Shown one piece after another: positions 18,581 through 30,930 of a stretch of DNA of 64,000 nucleotides (the first letter of the stretch is position 1; each line of letters begins with the position of its first letter). The DNA lies in the NCBI GenBank assembly GCA_030053925.1, contig JASGCX010000009.1, forward strand, positions 1-64,000, given 5' to 3'. A program made the position numbers and the translations under genes. The DNA is from Flavobacterium sp. (GTDB taxonomy: Bacteria > Bacteroidota > Bacteroidia > Chitinophagales > Chitinophagaceae). The notes beneath the pieces were generated by a model. That model did not search any database, had not been told where the DNA came from, and was given only the letters and a program-made list of their open reading frames with translations.

Positions 18581-19552
18581 CTATCCAAGAGATAAGTGAT
18601 TGATAAAAAGCGTATGTGGTGCAGACACTAAATTAATATCGAACTTCAATGAAGGTTCTATTCTTGAACTTGCATTATGGATTCTAAAAGAAATTTGCCA
18701 GCCTTCTGTCAATGACACTAACAATGTAGTTTGAGAATTGTCTTGGTAGACAATTTCAATAAGACGATTAGGTAATTTTAGTTTTTGCAATTTCAACTTT
18801 GGCTTGATACTTTCAAATGGCAGACTTAGCGTACCATGTAAATTATAAGCTTGTATTTCAACTTTATTTTTTCCTTTTATGACCTTATAAAAATCTTGAT
18901 TTCCAATTAAATATTCAACAAGCCTTTGTGCCACAATACCAGGGTTTTCCTTATCAAGTCTTATAAGTTCTTTCTTAAAAGCATCAAGAATAGGAACATA
19001 AACAGATGTATGATAATCACCCAAGGTTGACCATTTTTGAGTTGCTTTACTTGCAGTTCTCAACTTTTCTAACTCATCAAAAATTGGTTTTATTTCTGAA
19101 AAATAGTTTTCTGAGCATGGTACACCTAGCCACTTTTCACCGAAGTTTATATCACTCGACAAACGAGAGTGTTTTACAGCACGATGGTTGTTTTTTGCAG
19201 AAATTCCTATTTCCCATTTCTGCAAAGAACGTATTGCCAAAACATCTCTTACATCACCAATTTGACCTTGTTTATCAGAAACAATTTCAAGTTGCAAAAC
19301 ATCGTTTTTATTTATACCTTTTGACAAACGTGGTTCTAAATCAATAAGAAAATTGAGAGCAAAACTTGCATTCAAATTATACAATCCTTTGTCAGTATTA
19401 TTGAATGTATCAAAGCATTTTTTCGTAGTTTTTAAAGGATCATTTTCGATGACTATTACATTAGTTATAGTTTGCAATCTTTCTAAGAAAGCATTTAAAA
19501 GTGCAAATTCAAATGCCTTACCAGTTATTGTTTGTTTTGCTTCTTTTGGCAT
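18581..19552 (-). CDS. HaeIII-family restriction endonuclease (predicted GGCC)
   Basis: GKAFEFALLNAFLERLQTITNV...DVLQLEIVSDKQGQIGDVRDVLAIRSLQKWEIGISAKNNHRAVKHSRLSSDINFGEKWLG resembles R.HaeIII from memory; adjacent to an M.HaeIII-like gene. Confidence 0.88.
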   Translation of the reverse strand: MPKEAKQTITGKAFEFALLNAFLERLQTITNVIVIENDPLKTTKKCFDTFNNTDKGLYNLNASFALNFLIDLEPRLSKGINKNDVLQLEIVSDKQGQIGDVRDVLAIRSLQKWEIGISAKNNHRAVKHSRLSSDINFGEKWLGVPCSENYFSEIKPIFDELEKLRTASKATQKWSTLGDYHTSVYVPILDAFKKELIRLDKENPGIVAQRLVEYLIGNQDFYKVIKGKNKVEIQAYNLHGTLSLPFESIKPKLKLQKLKLPNRLIEIVYQDNSQTTLLVSLTEGWQISFRIHNASSRIEPSLKFDINLVSAPHTLFINHLSLG

Positions 19553-19555
19553 TAT

Positions 19556-20647
19556 CTAATGTGTTACGGCATTTACAATTTCAAGCATTTTTTTACGAAC
19601 AACATGACCATTAAAAAATTCACTGCTCTTTAAAATGCTTTGTTTTTTATTTATTTTCAAGTTGCTTAAATCATTATAAATTTTTTCGGCTAACACTTTT
19701 CCCATACGAACAGGAACAGCATTGCCAATCATTTTATAACCTGCAACAACACTATTATAATAAAAAGTAAAACTATCAGGAAAAGTTTGAATTCTTGCAC
19801 ATTCTCTTACGGACAATCTACGATACAAATGCTCTTTTCCTTTCACAAACTCACGTAGATTTTGCTCAATAAATTTCATTTTTGGTGCTTGTGGATGAAT
19901 TGGTGCATGACGACCACCAGCTTGTATTGTAAAAGAGACTTCATCCCAAGAACGCACCCTATTTCTTGACATAAAAATTGAAGAAAACCCACCAATCATA
20001 TACTCATGATTTTTAACTGTACAGTTTTCACCGTTAGTGTAGTTGCCTTCTTTCGCAGGTAAAACATTATCCTTTAAATCGCCAATAGCTTTTTCAAGTG
20101 TAATCTTTTTTTCAGGTGTTGTAGCAAGTGGGAATTGAAATTTTAAACCTAAATCTTTTCTATAGCCAATGAAAAATACACGTTTTCTATCTTGTGGTAT
20201 ACCAAAGTCAGAGACATTCAATAACTGAAACGACAAATCATAACCAATATCAGTAAACATTTGCTTTATGTTGGCCAGTGCTTCTTTATGTGCAGGCAAC
20301 AACATACCAGACACATTTTCAGCTAAAAAAAACTTAGGTTTTTTATCTGCAAGTATTCTCATAAACTCATAAAAAAGTTGACCTCTTTTATCGGCTATTC
20401 CTTTTTTAGAACCAGCTTCAGACCAACTTTGGCATGGTGGACCACCAATAATTCCATCACAATCTGGAACTTCATTTGAAGGAATATCAACGATACTTCG
20501 TCTATCTAAAACTGTATTTTTATGGTTCTTCTCGTAGGTTTCCCATATTTCTTTGTCGTATTCATTAGCCCAAATGACATCAAAACCAACTTTTTCAAAA
20601 CCTAAATCAAGACCGCCAGCACCAGCAAAGAATGACACAACTTTCAT
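19556..20647 (-). CDS. C5 cytosine DNA methyltransferase, M.HaeIII-like
   Basis: FFAGAGGLDLGFEKVGFDVIWANEYDKEIWETYEKNH, IIGGPPCQSWSEAGS, FFLAENVSGML, MIGNAVPV; likely start is internal Met at 20647. Confidence 0.93.
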   Translation of the reverse strand: MKVVSFFAGAGGLDLGFEKVGFDVIWANEYDKEIWETYEKNHKNTVLDRRSIVDIPSNEVPDCDGIIGGPPCQSWSEAGSKKGIADKRGQLFYEFMRILADKKPKFFLAENVSGMLLPAHKEALANIKQMFTDIGYDLSFQLLNVSDFGIPQDRKRVFFIGYRKDLGLKFQFPLATTPEKKITLEKAIGDLKDNVLPAKEGNYTNGENCTVKNHEYMIGGFSSIFMSRNRVRSWDEVSFTIQAGGRHAPIHPQAPKMKFIEQNLREFVKGKEHLYRRLSVRECARIQTFPDSFTFYYNSVVAGYKMIGNAVPVRMGKVLAEKIYNDLSNLKINKKQSILKSSEFFNGHVVRKKMLEIVNAVTH

Positions 20648-20824
20648 TACTAATAATTTTAGCACAAAGTAAAGGCTAAGATTGACTTGGTCAAATTTTT
20701 TTACTGACAATTGTAAAAGCGTAACCACTCACCCCTAAATAATCTGCGTTATCTGCGAAATCTGCTAGTACCAAACCTCAATTTACCATAAGTTCCTTAG
20801 CTTGCTACCTCATAAGATAACACT

Positions 20825-21763: not shown

Positions 21764-21905
21764 CTAGCTAATATTATAAAACAACGCTACAATACTAGGG
21801 TTTTGCTACTGAGTATGCAGCTAAACTTTCAAAACATTTTAAAAGGTTTTCTGTATATTTTTCTTTACTTCTTAATGATTAGTGTAAGGCTTTAAAATAA
21901 TTTGT

Positions 21906-22283
21906 TAGCCTTTTTAAACACGATGGTAGCCTTTCTAAACACGATGGTATAGCTTTTAAAAGCTGGTGTAGCCTTTCTAAACACGATGGTAGCCCATCTA
22001 AACACGATGGTAGCCTTTCTAAACACGATGGTAGCCCTTCTAAATACGATGGTAGCCCTTCTAAACACGATGATAGCCTTTTTAAACACGATGGTAGCCT
22101 TTCTAAACACGATGGTAGCCTTTCTAAACACGATGGTATCCCTTCTAAACACGATGGTAGCCTTTCAAAACACCATGGTAGCCCATCTAAATACGATGGT
22201 AGCCTTTCTAAACACGATGGTAGCCTTTCTAAACACGATGGTAGCCTTTCAAAATACCATGGTATAGCTTCTAAAGGCTGGGG
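21906..22283. repeat. 21-bp tandem repeat, 18 units, consensus TAGCCTTTCTAAACACGATGG
   Basis: 18 consecutive 21-bp units read by eye with no indel; units 3 and 18 are a shared divergent variant (tatagcttYtaaaRgctgg.g). Confidence 0.97.
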
Positions 22284-22483
22284 TAGGCTTCCTAAAATGG
22301 TTACAATTGGTACTAAAATACAGTCAACCTATTACATATATACAGGTAAACCAAGTATGCTAGGGGGGTAAACTATTAAACGATAGTTCATGTACATCTT
22401 GTGAATAATGTGTGGATAAAATATAGCGAATACGAATACGTTGGAATAAAAGCAACCGTTATCTTAGTGCAAAAATAAGCACT

Positions 22484-23422: not shown

Positions 23423-23657
23423 GAGAAAGGGCTAACAAGTAAAAGCCGTTTAGCCGCTGTTGGGGATGCTTTTAACAATAGTTTTTTGTAATAGTTGTTG
23501 GTTGAAGACACAACAACGGCTACATAGCCTCTGCCGTGCTTGGCGACCTCACGAAACACAGAAAGTTTGCGTATAAATGGTATGTGAAGGGAGGTGTTGG
23601 GCGTAAGTTTAAACAGCATCCTACTTAAATTCAAGTTCGCATGACTTTACCGACACA

Positions 23658-23777
23658 ACCCAACGCACCAAGTCAAGCACATTTGCAAGGCACACAAAGC
23701 CGAAACACAAAAGCCAACCTTGCAAAAAAGCCTGCCTTGTGCCAACTCACAGCCCACCGCACCCCGGCTGACGAATA
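23658..23777 (+). repeat. Left copy of a divergent ~115-bp boundary element flanking the GTPase/PNP operon
   Basis: Head ACCCAACGCACCAAGTCA, tail CGGCTGACGAA; 106 bp between head and tail starts; matches the element at 30393. Confidence 0.55.
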
Positions 23778-23862
23778 TCAATTATTTTTATTGCAACTGC
23801 ATAAAACACACTTTATTCCTAACTTTGAACTTTAGACTTTCATATTTAAAAACAACAACAAT

Positions 23863-25131
23863 ATGGACGATAAATTTTTACAATCACTTTTAAAAACAGG
23901 GCTGTTTGATATTGGTGACAGCGATGAAAGGTTGAAATGGCTTCAACAATCCATTACAGACTTACAAAAGAAATTGGAAGAGGATTATTCTCTTTTGCCC
24001 AAACATACTTTGGTTGCACTTGACCCAAATATATCTGACACTGAGCCGATACTAATTGAAACAGAACTAATTGTTACTGCCTACTGGAAAGCTCTTAGGG
24101 GAAAATACCCAGAAATGCCGCGGAATATTCTCAGAGGTGTAATTCTGAATTCATTAAATAATGTTGGAGTTGCAGCCCCTATCGCTGCAAGAATCATTTA
24201 CTTGACTGCACTAAATTTTTTCCCTTATGCTAAACTTAATAATGAAAAAGGTTTAGTTGAAACAATGCTAAATGAATTGGGAGAAATAGCAGAAATAAAT
24301 GCAATGGAAGAATGGTCATTGATAGAAGAAGAACCATCTCTCAAACTTGGAACCTTGAAAATAACTGACTTTAAATTCAATAAAGTAGAGCTTGATAAAT
24401 CTGAACTTAAGGCTGGAATGTTAGTGGCTATTCAAAATGGCGGAACTCAGGGGTATGGCTCAAACCATGGTGGAAATAGTACATGGGGAGAACACTTCGC
24501 AGTAAGTTCAAGCGAAGCAATAACTACCTCATTTATGAAGACATTCGATCAGTTTAACAAATCACTTACCCCAACGGCTTTTGAAACACCTATAAATAAA
24601 TTTTTTGCAGAATTCAAAAAGGCTTTAGATGCAAATCTGAAAACATCATTTGCTTCTTTGACAGCCGTTGAACGAAGGAGTAAATTGTTATGGTGGAAGG
24701 AAACTTTATATTCCCCATCTTTAAAAAGAAGTTACAGAGGATTAGATAAAAATGTATTACCAATAATAATGGGTGCAGACTTAAATAATCAAGTTCCCGA
24801 AATAACACCTATCAGTGCTGATTATCTTTTAAGAGATACATTGCTTTTATTGAACGAGAAGAAAGATGATTTGATAAAATTCACTGACTACCTGACTGCA
24901 ATTTCCGAGAACACATTGAAGTCAATTCTGAAAAATTATCTCACAACTTTGAATGAGATTGAAGGTAGAATTTCTATAACAGATTTTATCGCATTATTAC
25001 TGAACGACAGAGTGAAAATAACCGAATTATTTTCCAAAACAGGGATTAAAGAAGACGAGCAAATTTCATTAAGTGATTTATCGGTTGCGATTTTACATGA
25101 CCTTTTAACTAAAAGACTAATTTCTGAATAG
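23863..25131 (+). CDS. All-helical protein of GTPase-associated conflict system (GASH-like)
   Basis: 422 aa, largely helical in appearance, first gene of a tight operon with two GTPases and a GAP1-like protein; call rests mainly on context. Confidence 0.6.
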   Translation: MDDKFLQSLLKTGLFDIGDSDERLKWLQQSITDLQKKLEEDYSLLPKHTLVALDPNISDTEPILIETELIVTAYWKALRGKYPEMPRNILRGVILNSLNNVGVAAPIAARIIYLTALNFFPYAKLNNEKGLVETMLNELGEIAEINAMEEWSLIEEEPSLKLGTLKITDFKFNKVELDKSELKAGMLVAIQNGGTQGYGSNHGGNSTWGEHFAVSSSEAITTSFMKTFDQFNKSLTPTAFETPINKFFAEFKKALDANLKTSFASLTAVERRSKLLWWKETLYSPSLKRSYRGLDKNVLPIIMGADLNNQVPEITPISADYLLRDTLLLLNEKKDDLIKFTDYLTAISENTLKSILKNYLTTLNEIEGRISITDFIALLLNDRVKITELFSKTGIKEDEQISLSDLSVAILHDLLTKRLISE

Positions 25132-25132
25132 T

Positions 25133-26098
25133 ATGGCAGGCAAGTGTTCACATCCATCATGTTTTCCAAACGACACAGGTTGTAATGTTGAAGGCTGTTC
25201 TAACTTATCGGAATGTAAATATTACGAGAAGGGAGATACATCGGAAGAAAATCAACCAGCGGAGGAGGAATTTTATAGAATCCCGTGGACTGGAAATACT
25301 CTTGGTTTATCCGACCTCAATTTTCTGACCGCATCTACAAAACCAATTCTTGTTGGCATTGCAGGTGTTGCAAGTGCAGGAAAAACAACATTCCTAGCTT
25401 CACTCTATTGCTTGTTAAGGCATGGAAAAAAAATCGGTGGCTATAGTTTTTCAGGTTCCTTAACTCTTAATGGCTGGGAAAATATTGCATGGTATTTAAG
25501 TTGGAAAAACAATGGCAACATTCAATTCCCACCTCATACAACCAACAACTCAGGCAGAGTTCCCGGATTATTGCATTTGGCTTTGAAAAATAAAAATGGA
25601 GAAAAAAAAGATTTGATTTTTACTGATGCACCCGGAGAGTGGTTTGACCATTGGAGAAATAATGTAAATAGTGAAAACGCAAAAGGTGCAAAGTGGATAC
25701 ACGATAATTGTGATGCCTTTTTACTTTTTGCCGATTGCGATATGCTTGCAGGAAGTAAGAGAGGACAAGCAAAGTTGCAAATCAATTCAGTTGCTGATAG
25801 ATTGTTTGAAAGAATTGGTGACAGACCTTTTGGTTTAGTGTGGTCAAAATCAGATGTGGCTATATCTGACATAACCAAGGAACAAATTCTTTCACACATA
25901 AAAGAAAATCTGCTAACGCATTTCATTGAGTTTGCAACAAGTGTAAACGAAGGTGAAGGAGGTGTTTTTCATCAGAACATTTGCGAATCTATGAATTGGA
26001 TAATTGAAAAGTTAGACAGCAATATGAATATCATTCCAAAAATTTCATCCTTCAAACAAGAGGATATGTTTCTTTCAAAAAGATCAGTCAATGGATAA
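25133..26098 (+). CDS. TRAFAC-type P-loop GTPase with N-terminal Cys cluster (double-GTPase system, first GTPase)
   Basis: GVASAGKTTF (G1), FTDAPGEWF (G3), LVWSKSDVA (G4); Cys-rich N-terminus KCSHPSCFPNDTGCNVEGCSNLSECKYY. Confidence 0.8.
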   Translation: MAGKCSHPSCFPNDTGCNVEGCSNLSECKYYEKGDTSEENQPAEEEFYRIPWTGNTLGLSDLNFLTASTKPILVGIAGVASAGKTTFLASLYCLLRHGKKIGGYSFSGSLTLNGWENIAWYLSWKNNGNIQFPPHTTNNSGRVPGLLHLALKNKNGEKKDLIFTDAPGEWFDHWRNNVNSENAKGAKWIHDNCDAFLLFADCDMLAGSKRGQAKLQINSVADRLFERIGDRPFGLVWSKSDVAISDITKEQILSHIKENLLTHFIEFATSVNEGEGGVFHQNICESMNWIIEKLDSNMNIIPKISSFKQEDMFLSKRSVNG

Positions 26099-26948
26099 TA
26101 TAAGCGATAATAATGTTTTAATAATTGGCGGGCCTCATGCAGGTAAAACCCATTTTGGAGGACAACTGTATGGACGGCTTAACAGCCGTCAATTCAATTA
26201 TAAAATTGCACCTCAAAACAGACCTGCTGACCTTACTATATTCCAAGACGTTTTAGATAAATTATCGGAAGGTAAAAGAGCAGGTCATACGGAAGCATCA
26301 GCCAACAGAAACATTGAATTGAAAATTGATGATTCTAAAGGCAACAACATTGTTTTTGCTTTTCCCGATTACGCAGGAGAGCAAGTTAGAATGATTGTAG
26401 ATAGCAGAAGAGTAAATACTATTTGGAAAGAATACATTGACCAAAGCACTTCGTGGATGTTATTTGTCCGCTTAGATGAAGTACCAACAATTGAAGACAT
26501 AATTAACAAAGGAATTCCCAATGCAGAAGAAATAAAAAAAAGAAATGCTCAACCACCGCCAGTTAGAATTTCGGATGCTGCACATTTTATAGAATTACTT
26601 CAAACATTTTTATACATCAAAGGTGTTCCTTCATTTAATAAAGTAACCAAACCCAATTTGACAATTGTTCTTTCATGTTGGGATGTTTTGAATTTAGAGG
26701 GTAATGTTATTCCATCTGACTTGCTAAAGGAGAGATTACCATTGCTATTCGATTTTGTAAGTAATTCATGGCAAGAAAATTCACTTTCTGTTTTAGGGCT
26801 TTCATCTACAGAAAAAACATTAACAGATGAACCTGATGAAGATTATATTGAAAGGACACCAATAAATTTTGGGTATATCATTAACGCCAAAGGACAAAGA
26901 GAAAATGACTTAACATTATCAATTGCAAATTTCATTGGAAGAAAATAA
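26091..26948 (+). CDS. P-loop GTPase (double-GTPase system, second GTPase)
   Basis: LIIGGPHAGKTHFGGQLY (G1), FAFPDYAGEQVRMIV (G3), VLSCWDVL in the G4 position; 8-bp overlap with upstream gene. Confidence 0.8.
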   Translation: MDNISDNNVLIIGGPHAGKTHFGGQLYGRLNSRQFNYKIAPQNRPADLTIFQDVLDKLSEGKRAGHTEASANRNIELKIDDSKGNNIVFAFPDYAGEQVRMIVDSRRVNTIWKEYIDQSTSWMLFVRLDEVPTIEDIINKGIPNAEEIKKRNAQPPPVRISDAAHFIELLQTFLYIKGVPSFNKVTKPNLTIVLSCWDVLNLEGNVIPSDLLKERLPLLFDFVSNSWQENSLSVLGLSSTEKTLTDEPDEDYIERTPINFGYIINAKGQRENDLTLSIANFIGRK

Positions 26949-29900
26949 AATCATTATTCAACAAGCATACTACGGAGAAGTAAACAGGGCTCATTCATGT
27001 ATAATACAAACAACAAATGATTCCGAACTCACCTCTTTATTAATTGCTTTTTCAGACAGACCAGCGGCATTGCCGCCTGGAGTTGAACTAACACCTTACC
27101 TTTCAGGAGTAGCTTTTTCAAAGCAATATATTTTCACAAAAACTTTTCCCGACCCATTTGCAACAAGGGCAGGTATGGTTTTTACACATGCTTTAATACT
27201 CAATTTTTATGACATTTCTTCTGTCAATAATCTTGATGATATTCTATACTACTTTGTCAATGAAGTTCCAAAAGAAAGAACTGAATTGAAGCCGATAACC
27301 ATAAGCATTTCAAAAGAGAATTCAATTTCAGCGAATAGAGTTCAACCAAAATTTATTCAAGAAACTATTGCTGCTTTTATTAGCGGAACTTATCCAGTTT
27401 TATTTTCAGGAAGTATTGACTCATTTAAGATTGCACTTCAGAAAATTTGGAATTCACCAAATACCGAGTTTAGAAAAAAAATAAAATTCAGAACAAGTTT
27501 TACTCCATCGGATTTGGACGGAACAAAAGACTTGACAATAGTTTCCATACAAAAAGAATTTTTACCAAAATGGACAGGACAAAAAATCATTCAATCTGAA
27601 AACAATAAGCAAGTAGAAATCACTTCACATTCAGAGGCACTTTTTTTAGGGCATAAAAAAGACAACCCCTTTTATTCATTTTTAATTGAGTTAAATGTAA
27701 TTCAATCAGACTTTCAAGTTTTTGGTCAATGTGATAAGGTTTACAATGACTATATCAGTTTGGATAAAGTTGATGATGCCAATATTTTGAGACAAGACAT
27801 AAGATTGCTTACAAAAATATCTCCATCCCCAAACGATGGGAGAAAAGTTAAAGAACGCTTCATTAAAAGGTTGGAAGAACTTATTCAAAATGGAAAGGAT
27901 TCAAACATAAAAGCGTTAAGAAATATTGAGTGGTCAGCATTTGACAATGGAGAAGCAAAAGGAAAAGGAATTGTTTATGATTTTATTGCAAACGAACTTT
28001 TTAAAGCAACGAAGATTCCTTTATTATCAGAACTTCTAAATATTGCTTGCAGTGAGCAGCCAAAAATTTGGTGGCATAACTCAATTCAAGAATATTTTAA
28101 AATTCCACTTGCGAATTACACAAAACCCTTACTTGAGAACCTTTGGAAATTGATAGACGATTCCGAACAGTCTTGTAAAAATGTTTTTTCTCTTGTAAAT
28201 GTTTCAACTGAGAGTGAACACTCTTTGAGAAATAGTATTCCAGTAAAAATAAAGGACGAAACCTCAAAGGCACTTGAAGCCATTTCCAAAAAAAGAAAAT
28301 GGTTCTTATTTCATGCTGACCTTCTACTGAAACATTTGCTGACTGATAAAGCCATTGTAAAACAATTGGTGATTGAAGAATCTTTAAGCCTTAAAGATTC
28401 TGTTGGAGTAAAATATCTTTTCGAGAAATTAAATGATAAAGAACTAATTGCCCTAACATTATCAACCATTGACACCAAGCTAATCCAACTTACAGTAGAA
28501 AGAATTTCAAAAGATAAATCACTTCTAAAGGAAATAGATGTTAGTATTCCTTGCTGGCTAACTATCTGGTCAATGACATTGAACAAAACGAGGAACATTT
28601 CAGCAGGTATTGAAGGTAAAGAACAGGCAATAATAAATTCCGTTTTTGACTTATTGGTAAAAGAAACCCCAATTCAAGAAGTCATAATTGAGTTGATTGC
28701 AAGTTCAACTTTTGCTGACATTACGAATTACAAACAAAGAGATAAACTTTGGAAAGTTATTCCGACAAAGTTTACAGAAATATTTCTTTCTGTAACTTCA
28801 AAAAAGGTTGTGCAACAACTGTTGTCAGGAAAAGTTGATGTAAGCACAATTGAAAATCAGCTTTCAACAAAGATTACTTCTGATTCCTTCATGTCCAACT
28901 TTCTTGATGAACACAAAAACGATATTGGTAGCGTAATTAAAGTTTATGAATCATTTCCAAATCTGAAAGACGATTTTCTTTCTGAGTATATTTCATATTA
29001 CAGAAACTCAATTATAGAAATCGATGCAAAAAACCTTGGAACTTTAGTTAGCAAAAATAAATTCAACAAGTCGGCTAAAAGCATTTATGAGAAATCAAAA
29101 TACAATCACACTTTCAGGGCTGCATTTGAAATTTGTAAAGACTTGGTTACTATTGGTTTTTGGGACTCGTTTTTTCCCTCATCCGATAAACAAAAGAAGT
29201 ATAAACACGAAACAAGTAATATGCCTCAAAGCAAACAAAATGATTTACCTACTGTAGTGATTCTTACCGCAATTCAGGAAGAGTATTTAGCAGTTAAAGA
29301 ACACCTTACAAATGTTGTTGATGGTGATAGGAATAATACCGATTATGAAATCGGCATTTTTGAATATAATGGGAAAGGAATTGCAAATGTTATTATTCGT
29401 GAGTGCGGAGCAAAAAATACAACAGCTTCACAAGAAACAGAAAGAGCAATAAATTACTTTAATCCAAACATGATGATGTTTGTAGGAATTGCAGGTTCAA
29501 GAAAGCCAAATGATTTTAAGATTGGCGATGTCATTTTTCCAGATAAAATCTATTACTACGAAGGTGGCAAAGCAGCATTAAATTCTTTTAAAGCAAGACC
29601 TGATGCCGTTTCTCCAACATTTGAATTATTAGAGAAAGCAAAGAAAGAGAGAAAGAAAAAAGATTGGAGGGCAATGATAAAAGGCAATTATTCAGATTCA
29701 GTAAAAGCGAACATCGGAATCATTGCATCAGGCGAACAATTAATTGACCATCACGATTCTGAAATTGGAAAACTACTTAACGTGCACTATAATGATTCAT
29801 CTGCTGTTGAAATGGAAGGTTATGGATTTGTCAAAGCAGCAAGCAGGCAGGGAAGTGAAACAAAAAATATTATCGTTGGAGTTGTTAGAGGTATATCAGA

Positions 29901-30030
29901 TATAATTGAATTACCAGCAGACAAAGAATCAGAAGTCAGTATTGACAGAAGACCCGACAATGCAAAACTATTTGCCTCTGATACTGCTGCTGCATTTGCA
30001 TTTTGGTTGATTTTAAAAACATACGAGTAA
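26923..30030 (+). CDS. GAP1-like GTPase-associated protein fused to C-terminal PNP/nucleosidase domain
   Basis: N-terminus QQAYYGEVNRAHSCIIQTT...ALPPGVELTPYLSGVAFSKQYIFTKTFPDPFATRAGMVFTHALIL; C-terminus VVILTAIQEEYLAVKEHL...MMMFVGIAGSRKPNDFKIGDVIFPDKIYYYEGGK...SSAVEMEGYGFVKAAS...VGVVRGISDI. Confidence 0.85.
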   Translation: MQISLEENKIIIQQAYYGEVNRAHSCIIQTTNDSELTSLLIAFSDRPAALPPGVELTPYLSGVAFSKQYIFTKTFPDPFATRAGMVFTHALILNFYDISSVNNLDDILYYFVNEVPKERTELKPITISISKENSISANRVQPKFIQETIAAFISGTYPVLFSGSIDSFKIALQKIWNSPNTEFRKKIKFRTSFTPSDLDGTKDLTIVSIQKEFLPKWTGQKIIQSENNKQVEITSHSEALFLGHKKDNPFYSFLIELNVIQSDFQVFGQCDKVYNDYISLDKVDDANILRQDIRLLTKISPSPNDGRKVKERFIKRLEELIQNGKDSNIKALRNIEWSAFDNGEAKGKGIVYDFIANELFKATKIPLLSELLNIACSEQPKIWWHNSIQEYFKIPLANYTKPLLENLWKLIDDSEQSCKNVFSLVNVSTESEHSLRNSIPVKIKDETSKALEAISKKRKWFLFHADLLLKHLLTDKAIVKQLVIEESLSLKDSVGVKYLFEKLNDKELIALTLSTIDTKLIQLTVERISKDKSLLKEIDVSIPCWLTIWSMTLNKTRNISAGIEGKEQAIINSVFDLLVKETPIQEVIIELIASSTFADITNYKQRDKLWKVIPTKFTEIFLSVTSKKVVQQLLSGKVDVSTIENQLSTKITSDSFMSNFLDEHKNDIGSVIKVYESFPNLKDDFLSEYISYYRNSIIEIDAKNLGTLVSKNKFNKSAKSIYEKSKYNHTFRAAFEICKDLVTIGFWDSFFPSSDKQKKYKHETSNMPQSKQNDLPTVVILTAIQEEYLAVKEHLTNVVDGDRNNTDYEIGIFEYNGKGIANVIIRECGAKNTTASQETERAINYFNPNMMMFVGIAGSRKPNDFKIGDVIFPDKIYYYEGGKAALNSFKARPDAVSPTFELLEKAKKERKKKDWRAMIKGNYSDSVKANIGIIASGEQLIDHHDSEIGKLLNVHYNDSSAVEMEGYGFVKAASRQGSETKNIIVGVVRGISDIIELPADKESEVSIDRRPDNAKLFASDTAAAFAFWLILKTYE

Positions 30031-30039
30031 GAACTGATA

Positions 30040-30387
30040 ATGGCAATAGACTCTTTACAAACTTTAGATGTGATTGAAGCAATGGAAAATTTCATTGCAA
30101 GAAAAAGACCACCTAAACAAATCAGACGTAAATTGGATTTAGGATATAAAATTGCAGAACAAAGTATCATTGTGTTTGAGATAAGACCACAGTGGGACAA
30201 GCCAGAATTAATCAGAGAACATCCTCTTGCCAAGACAACTTTCGTGAAAGCAAAAAATCAGTGGAAAATATTTTGGTTAACAGCGGATTTAAATAGGCAC
30301 AGTTATTCACCAAAGCCGACAGTCACAACAATAGAGGAATTCAATAAACTTGTTGAAGAAGATAAACATCATTGCTTCTGGGGATAA
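30040..30387 (+). CDS. DUF3024 family protein
   Basis: RPPKQIRRKLDLGYKIAEQSIIVFEIRPQWDKP...AKTTFVKAKNQWKIFWLTADLNRHSYSPKPTVTTIEEFNKLVEEDKHHCFWG; begins 10 bp after the previous stop. Confidence 0.8.
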   Translation: MAIDSLQTLDVIEAMENFIARKRPPKQIRRKLDLGYKIAEQSIIVFEIRPQWDKPELIREHPLAKTTFVKAKNQWKIFWLTADLNRHSYSPKPTVTTIEEFNKLVEEDKHHCFWG

Positions 30388-30392
30388 AAGGA

Positions 30393-30512
30393 ATCCAACA
30401 CACCAAGGCACAGGCAACACTCTAAGGTTGGACACAGACCCACATTATAGATAAACGAGGAGAAGGGCGAACGTACAACATGGGGTTTGCCAAAATACGG
30501 GCTGACGGAAGT
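30393..30512 (+). repeat. Right copy of the divergent ~115-bp boundary element
   Basis: Head ATCCAACACACCAAGGCA, tail GGGCTGACGGAA; 105 bp between head and tail starts. Confidence 0.55.
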
Positions 30513-30741
30513 TATCTTCAGCTTTTTGTAATTCTATTGTGCTTCATATCCAGCTTGTCGTAATTCTATTTAGCTTTTGTTTGTTATCTTCATCATCAGT
30601 TTTTCAATCGGCTTTAGTTGCCGGGCGGACACAGCAACAATTCCAGCCCTGCAGCAATACCTGCCCATTTGCAGTAATTTTTTTAAACTCTCAACTTTAA
30701 AGCTAAATATAATTTTAATAACACAAAAAACGACAACTGCT

Positions 30742-30837
30742 ATGAACAAAAAATTAATTATCTCTACCCTTAGAAAAAATGGTTATAAAGTTGGTGCAAT
30801 AAAACGAGCAATTGGAAGATTACATTCACCCAAATAA
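30742..30837 (+). CDS. Possible 31-aa microprotein
   Basis: MNKKLIISTLRKNGYKVGAIKRAIGRLHSPK; basic; the longer upstream ORF is not credible. Confidence 0.3.
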   Translation: MNKKLIISTLRKNGYKVGAIKRAIGRLHSPK

Positions 30838-30930
30838 TAATCGTTCAGACATAATTTGTGTTTATGGCAATTGGTATTACTAATAATACTCAAATTAGAA
30901 CACCGAGGGAAATTTTAAAACTAAATAATA

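What the first reader, a model, noticed from the sequence alone, without database searches (positions are those of the whole stretch)
23658..30512. Matched ~115-bp direct elements bracketing the GTPase/PNP operon: a candidate cassette boundary of unknown type
Seen: left ACCCAACgCACCAAGtCA...(106 bp between head and tail starts)...GGCTGACGaA, right ATCCAACaCACCAAGgCA...(105 bp)...GGCTGACGgAA. Ends and spacing are conserved in the same orientation while the middles are diverged. The left middle contains TTGCAAGG/CCTTGCAA inverted copies. Conserved ends with a variable foldable middle recalls integron attC sites, and both heads fit RYYYAAC, but I see no clear GTTRRRY partner box and no integrase. 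Inference: a recombination-associated site that delivered the operon as a unit.
Basis: partly seen in the sequence, partly recalled or inferred. Interest (0 to 1): 0.72.

Follow-up and report, generated by a model that had tools for sequence, protein, structure and literature searches.

The report
Defence operon in an integron-type cassette
The two repeats mark the ends of a roughly 7-kb gene cassette that carries an anti-phage-type operon; the cassette belongs to an integron-like gene-capture system, run by a recombinase that lacks the standard integron-integrase domain, which I find in many Bacteroidota genomes and which the surveys I could read would have missed.

Summary
The left element (23660-23749) is a covarying hairpin, here called B, found in Chitinophagaceae-type genomes. 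Related loci show these are ends of gene cassettes. In 107 cassettes the bases after G^TT are complementary to the cassette's own end (6.2 of 7 variable positions; shuffled 3.08 +/- 0.13). Cassettes sit in arrays directly downstream of a co-oriented tyrosine recombinase and an attI-like site. The recombinase is Xer-like, lacks the IntI additional domain in 28/28 cases, and has an unassigned N-terminal domain found in 52/297 Bacteroidota genomes. The core site is GTTRNNNGYNA, not GTTRRRY. Cassettes without B: median 0.8 kb, one gene. With B: median 5.3 kb, 4 genes, mostly restriction-modification and other defence operons, many with their own promoter motif. The window copy is a lone, partly decayed cassette (about 23597-30667) carrying a GASH/DO-GTPase/GAP1-PNP/DUF3024 operon. 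I found no clean empty site, and what B does is unproven.

The parts
23596..23606 (+). Left cassette boundary: GTTGGGCGTAA, crossover inferred between G23596 and T23597
   Evidence: Fits the core GTTRNNNGYNA derived from 107 cassettes. It does not match the window's own right end (ACGTACAAC), so the two ends may come from different cassettes.
23607..23659 (+). Conserved cassette leader (TAAACAGCATCCTACTTAAATTCAAGTTCGCATGACTTTACCGACACAAC)
   Evidence: Aligned to leaders of other B cassettes; B begins about 50 nt from the cassette start in complete cassettes.
23660..23749 (+). Hairpin B, left copy: outer stem AAGTCAAGC/GCCTGCCTT, inner stem TTTGCAAGG/CCTTGCAAA
   Evidence: HMM hit, 90 bits; stem pairing and compensatory arm classes; single-strand folds.
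23820..23827 (+). Bacteroidota-type -7 promoter element TAACTTTG, 36 nt before the first gene
   Evidence: TAnnTTTG lies between B and the first gene in 15 of 24 comparable units, expected 1.2, opposite strand 2. Its role as promoter is from general knowledge.
23863..25131 (+). GASH protein gene (GTPase-associated system helical domain)
   Evidence: PF19994, E 1.9e-59
25133..26098 (+). DO-GTPase2 gene
   Evidence: PF19993, E 3.9e-62
26091..26948 (+). DO-GTPase1 gene
   Evidence: PF19975, E 6.5e-72
26923..30030 (+). GAP1-N1 protein with C-terminal PNP_UDP_1 phosphorylase-type domain
   Evidence: PF20012 E 1.3e-23 and PF01048 E 1.3e-19
30040..30387 (+). DUF3024 gene, last gene of the cargo
   Evidence: PF11225, E 1.1e-29
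30395..30407 (+). Remnant of the right hairpin B (CCAACACACCAAG); hairpin deleted, next to the stop codon of the last gene
   Evidence: Alignment to the C55 copy of the same genome; intact right B copies elsewhere.
30408..30470 (+). Conserved cassette trailer between B and attC
   Evidence: Collinear with the C55 copy, 91% identity over trailer and attC start.
30471..30677 (+). attC-like site: R'' ACGTACAAC 30471-30479, L'' GGGGTTTGCC 30482-30491, L' GCAATACC 30654-30661, degenerate R' ATTTGCAGTAA 30667-30677
   Evidence: HMM hit at 30468-30679, 159 bits. The window copy does not fold as a clean hairpin (z +0.8), whereas an intact relative does (z -4.2).

Best explanation
The operon is the cargo of a large gene cassette of an integron-type system (about 23597-30667). 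Shown from sequence: cassettes of this family run from T of one G^TT core to the next, their own start and end are complementary, they lie in same-direction arrays, and the array begins at an attI-like site just after a co-oriented tyrosine recombinase gene. Inferred: the recombinase (Xer-like, without the IntI additional domain, with an extra N-terminal domain) exchanges strands at G^TT between attI or an attI-like genomic site and the folded bottom strand of attC, so a circular cassette is inserted or removed as a unit. Multi-gene cassettes carry hairpin B at both ends: about 50 nt inside the start, upstream of the operon's own promoter, and directly after the last stop codon. My best guess for B is insulation (closing off transcription from neighbours and ending the operon's transcript), about 45%. 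The window copy lies alone, outside an array, and is probably no longer mobile, because its right B is deleted and its R' core is mutated. The confidence below is for the cassette reading, not for the role of B.
For: Start/end complementarity in 107 cassettes, 6.2 of 7 variable positions against 3.08 +/- 0.13 shuffled. Arrays directly after the integrase in L252, L255, L259, L260 and others, with the first cassette start about 97-220 nt after the integrase stop at CGTATATTTAcgTG^TT. The same layout in 14 of 16 distant Bacteroidota loci with a recognisable integrase ORF, chains up to 7 cassettes. Own-genome integrase on C25 beside era/der, as in G081. B-cassette size and gene number, covarying B stem, promoter motif, defence-type cargo. 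An integrase followed at once by a B cassette leader in L186 and L156.
Against: No empty site and no excised circle was seen. The window's start (TTGGGCGTAA) and R'' (ACGTACAAC) do not match each other, and its R' lacks the G. The window attC does not fold better than shuffles. No experiment shows that this recombinase acts on these sites. The size contrast between B and non-B cassettes is partly biased, because most loci were fetched with B or attC probes.
Confidence: 0.85

Rival explanations
1. Hairpin B is itself a second recombination site: cargo operons are swapped in and out of a fixed cassette frame (leader-B ... B-trailer-attC), giving nested mobility. This is compatible with the cassette reading and concerns only the role of B.
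For: The last stop codon sits within about 20 nt of the right B in most units, as genes sit beside attC. A fused cassette in C57 (L083:268-363) has an R-type left arm and an L-type right arm, so a crossover happened inside B. L183 and L245 share only the last gene at 94% identity.
Against: B has no GTT partner core. Left and right copies form separate sequence classes (BL-BR 0.68, BR-BR 0.79), and the same-unit excess is tiny (0.694 v 0.680). Crossover in a shared 90-bp repeat needs only homologous recombination. No triple arrays cargo-B-cargo-B were seen apart from the fusion.
Confidence: 0.25
2. The two 115-bp elements are themselves the attC-like sites that delivered the operon.
For: B folds, its outer arms covary, and it lies at both ends of the cargo.
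Against: A complete attC-like site with start/end matching lies outside B. Single-gene cassettes of the same arrays have no B. The right element in the window has no hairpin.
Confidence: 0.06
3. A non-autonomous transposon of IS200/IS605 or MITE type, with left and right end hairpins in the same orientation.
For: Same-orientation hairpins at both ends; no terminal inverted repeats seen.
Against: Ends coincide with attC cores and cassette complementarity. Units lie inside arrays next to a tyrosine recombinase.
Confidence: 0.03
4. Chance resemblance plus ordinary intergenic repeats.
For: The two quoted 115-bp elements alone barely exceed shuffles.
Against: Many copies in the genome and family; 34 distinct bracketed units.
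Confidence: 0.01

Closest known systems
Classical integrons (IntI / attI / attC), including sedentary chromosomal integrons
   Same: Tyrosine recombinase, attI beside it, same-direction arrays of cassettes, crossover G^TT, attC as a long imperfect palindrome whose outer arms match per cassette, stop codon beside the site
   Different: The integrase lacks the IntI additional domain (63-66 residues between GKxDR and HxLRHS in 28 of 28, against 105 in VchIntIA and 64 in XerA), has an unassigned N-terminal domain and is co-directional with the array. The core is GTTRNNNGYNA, not GTTRRRY (5 of 107). Large operon cassettes have paired B hairpins.
NF040815 recomb_XerA_Arch ('site-specific tyrosine recombinase/integron integrase')
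   Same: Best NCBIfam match of the array-linked recombinase over the catalytic part (211-219 bits, cut-off 220)
   Different: Extra N-terminal domain with WSxTxxxWyxP motif (two copies in L147), not matched by Pfam or by solved structures
Integron cassettes carrying phage defence in Vibrio and other hosts (from general knowledge)
   Same: Defence genes delivered as integron cassettes
   Different: Here large multi-gene operons (RM types I, II, IIG, III, HamA, TOTE-type, GTPase/PNP) bracketed by a dedicated hairpin pair
DO-GTPase / GASH / GAP1-PNP predicted conflict systems (Pfam families)
   Same: The cargo of the window has the full set of named domains
   Different: Ordinary member; what is notable is its carriage in a cassette

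Membership tests
Classical integron | Tyrosine recombinase gene next to the cassette array | tested here: met
   L252, L255, L259, L260 and distant loci; for the own genome only the truncated integrase on C25 is seen
Classical integron | IntI additional (patch) domain in the integrase | tested here: not met
   28 of 28 integrases have XerA-like spacing; TIGR02249 is matched in two broken pieces below cut-off
Classical integron | attI site beside the integrase where the first cassette starts | tested here: met
   Conserved CGTATATTTAcgTG^TT after the integrase stop; first cassette start matches its own R''
Classical integron | attC core RYYYAAC / GTTRRRY | tested here: not met
   GTTRRRY in 5 of 107; consensus GTTRNNNGYNA
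Classical integron | Cassettes as units with matching start and end | tested here: met
   for the window copy itself the two ends do not match
Classical integron | attC folds into a bottom-strand hairpin | tested here: inconclusive
   L102 attC z -4.2; window attC z +0.8
Classical integron | Integrase-catalysed cassette excision and insertion | not testable with these tools
   Needs an experiment
IS200/IS605-type transposon | Ends set by Y1 transposase hairpins; Y1 gene in the element | tested here: inconclusive
   Not among the listed Pfam families of the cargo, but only the top 25 families per set were shown; element ends coincide with cassette cores instead
DO-GTPase/GASH/GAP1-PNP conflict system | GASH, DO-GTPase1, DO-GTPase2, GAP1-N1 and an effector-type domain in one operon | tested here: met
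   Pfam matches

The most novel reading that the evidence does not exclude
Bacteroidota have their own integron class: a Xer-like recombinase with a new N-terminal domain replaces IntI and moves cassettes with a different core site, and one lineage has built dedicated operon-sized defence cassettes framed by paired hairpins.
Probability: 0.7. Interest if true: 0.85.

Novelty: new variant of a known kind. Interest (0 to 1): 0.74.

Why it matters
An early survey selected integron integrases by the IntI additional domain (PMC2426708, which cites Messier and Roy 2001 that this domain is necessary for activity), and a large later survey reports a complete integron in Bacteroidetes only for Salinibacter ruber (PMC9024848). 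A family that keeps the integron layout without that domain, with its integrase N-terminal domain seen in about one in six Bacteroidota genomes sampled, would mean that integron-type gene capture is far commoner in this phylum than recorded. It would give a second solution for cutting folded attC sites and explain how whole defence operons spread among these bacteria.

Tried and rejected
Rfam: no match for the window or for three loci rich in these sites. Empty site of the window and of the C118 cassette in relatives: no shared synteny on both sides. B in viral contigs: nine stretches with an exact 19-mer, all inside unrelated phage sequence and without hairpin context, so chance; integrase in viral contigs: none. 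B in plasmids: none; integrase with its N-terminal part on plasmids: only three records cover 80% of it. Single-sequence structure of the L147 integrase: unusable, pLDDT 35. N-terminal domain against solved structures: no credible match; a HARP-like fold, suggested by the W..W motif, is memory only and unsupported. RNAalifold on the full B alignment failed for alignment reasons and was replaced by direct arm pairing. Considered and dropped: IS200/IS605 ends, MITE, cargo island moved only by homologous recombination.

Full report
What was checked. The quoted strings exist, but the two 115-bp elements are not homologous over their length. Their global score barely exceeds shuffles (7.5 against -3.9 +/- 4.6, maximum 12.5). 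The left one is an intact hairpin, called B here. The right one is the first 13 nt of B, an 80-nt deletion, a conserved trailer and the beginning of a longer site.

Family. Left and right probes find 13 and 9 places in the own genome, a compound probe 31, and the compound probe matches in 35 of 100 genomes of the same family. Most named records with B are Chitinophagaceae or unnamed Bacteroidota bins. A few proteobacterial records carry little more than the bare 19-mer and look like chance. Left-type and right-type copies come in pairs in one orientation, with 2.3-10 kb of genes between them.

Cassette boundaries. Reading the copies side by side showed that right copies run into a long imperfect palindrome, about 147 or 211 nt, that ends in GTT. 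Left copies begin directly after such a GTT. HMMs of these sites gave arrays. For 107 attC-to-attC cassettes I compared the 7 variable bases after G^TT with the complement of the cassette's own end. The mean match is 6.2, against 3.08 +/- 0.13 when ends are shuffled among cassettes; 91 cassettes match in 6 or 7 positions, against 6 expected. This is the signature of circular cassettes joined at G^TT. The core consensus is GTTRNNNGYNA; the classical GTTRRRY fits only 5 of 107. One intact attC folds far better than shuffles on the bottom strand (z -4.2).

Integrase and attI. Arrays lie directly downstream of, and co-directional with, a tyrosine recombinase of about 345-490 aa in several genomes. 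The first cassette starts a short way after the integrase stop, behind a conserved CGTATATTTAcgTG. The catalytic part fits NF040815 and Xer models; TIGR02249 (integron integrase) is matched only in two pieces below cut-off. The spacing that holds the IntI additional domain is 105 residues in VchIntIA, 64 in XerA and 63-66 in all 28 integrases here. An N-terminal domain with a WSxTxxxWyxP motif has no credible Pfam or PDB match and occurs in 52 of 297 Bacteroidota genomes. Of 16 distant loci with a recognisable integrase ORF, 14 show the same order: integrase, attI-like site, cassettes with perfect 9-nt start/end matches, in chains of up to seven. By my own estimate a single such match near the integrase would arise by chance in roughly one locus in five, so the single-link loci are weak alone and the longer chains carry the weight. 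The own genome holds such an integrase on contig C25, cut off by the contig end, beside era and der as in G081.

B cassettes. Cassettes without B have a median of 776 bp and one forward ORF (n=88). Cassettes with B have a median of 5.3 kb and four ORFs (n=19); all 14 cassettes of 3.4 kb or more carry B. Most loci were chosen by B or attC probes, so this contrast is indicative only. B lies about 50 nt after the start and ends about 60 nt before R''. Its outer stem keeps pairing through several different arm sequences (34 distinct arm pairs; 7.0 of 8 paired against 5.1 +/- 0.25 shuffled), so the structure is probably under selection. Between the left B and the first gene a TAnnTTTG element is present in 15 of 24 units (1.2 expected). 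The right B follows the last stop codon closely in most units. The 34 distinct units hold 127 cargo proteins in 100 clusters. Among those matched, restriction-modification of several types dominates, with HamA, TOTE-type, DUF3375/DUF4194 and GTPase systems, and some metal-related genes.

The window copy. It is the only attC and the only B that the models find in the 64 kb. Its left core GTTGGGCGTAA fits the consensus. Its right R' (ATTTGCAGTAA) has lost the G, the right B is deleted, the attC fold is no better than shuffles, and start and end do not match each other. I read it as a lone, decayed and possibly chimeric cassette, inserted outside an array or left over from one. The cargo is a complete GASH, DO-GTPase2, DO-GTPase1, GAP1-N1/PNP, DUF3024 operon.

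What B does. Shown: structured, paired, at fixed places, two sequence classes (left and right). Inferred: insulation of a self-promoted operon is my first choice (about 45%); a second recombination layer is about 25% (a fused cassette in C57 shows a crossover inside B); the rest is unknown. None of this was tested.

Known or new. Integrons have been listed for Bacteroidota (PMC8618304), but the 2008 survey required the IntI additional domain (PMC2426708), and IntegronFinder 2.0 reports a complete integron in Bacteroidetes only for Salinibacter ruber (PMC9024848). I found no description of this recombinase class or of B in the open papers searched. Preprints and subscription papers were not searchable, so prior description cannot be excluded.

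Noticed in passing
window 21807-22352: Array of about 18 or more 21-bp tandem repeats that reads open on both strands (MVAFLNT / FRKATIV); similar short repeat ORFs lie near other loci (L345, L260).
   Followed up: no
window 18581-20728, minus strand: C-5 cytosine methylase-like gene (19556-20728) with a neighbouring unannotated gene (18581-19552) that could be its restriction partner, close upstream of the cassette; judged by eye only.
   Followed up: no
L083:268-363 (G000 C57): Fused cassette: gene, chimeric B (R-type left arm, L-type right arm), second cargo, B, attC; a crossover inside B seems to have removed a trailer-attC-leader stretch.
   Followed up: partly
L082:9219-9334, L087:8752-8860, L084:13694-13772: In the own genome several B copies have the inner arm replaced by a small hairpin TCCCGCTTTTGGCGGGA; L153 has a comparable CGATAGCCATCGGG insert.
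   Followed up: no
L147:4041-5504: Integrase with two copies of the N-terminal WS..W domain.
   Followed up: partly
L084:5330-5380: The C118 cassette begins inside what looks like the start of a peptidyl-prolyl isomerase-like gene, at GAA^TTGTAC, a sequence that resembles the cassette start.
   Followed up: partly
window 30800-30900 and G000 C107:20493-20600: A further 100-bp stretch shared at 86% identity, just outside the cassette.
   Followed up: no
plasmids NZ_CP041688.1, NZ_CP094530.1, NZ_CP012644.1: Chryseobacterium and Rufibacter plasmids carry a relative of the integrase over its full length, so the system may also be plasmid-borne.
   Followed up: no
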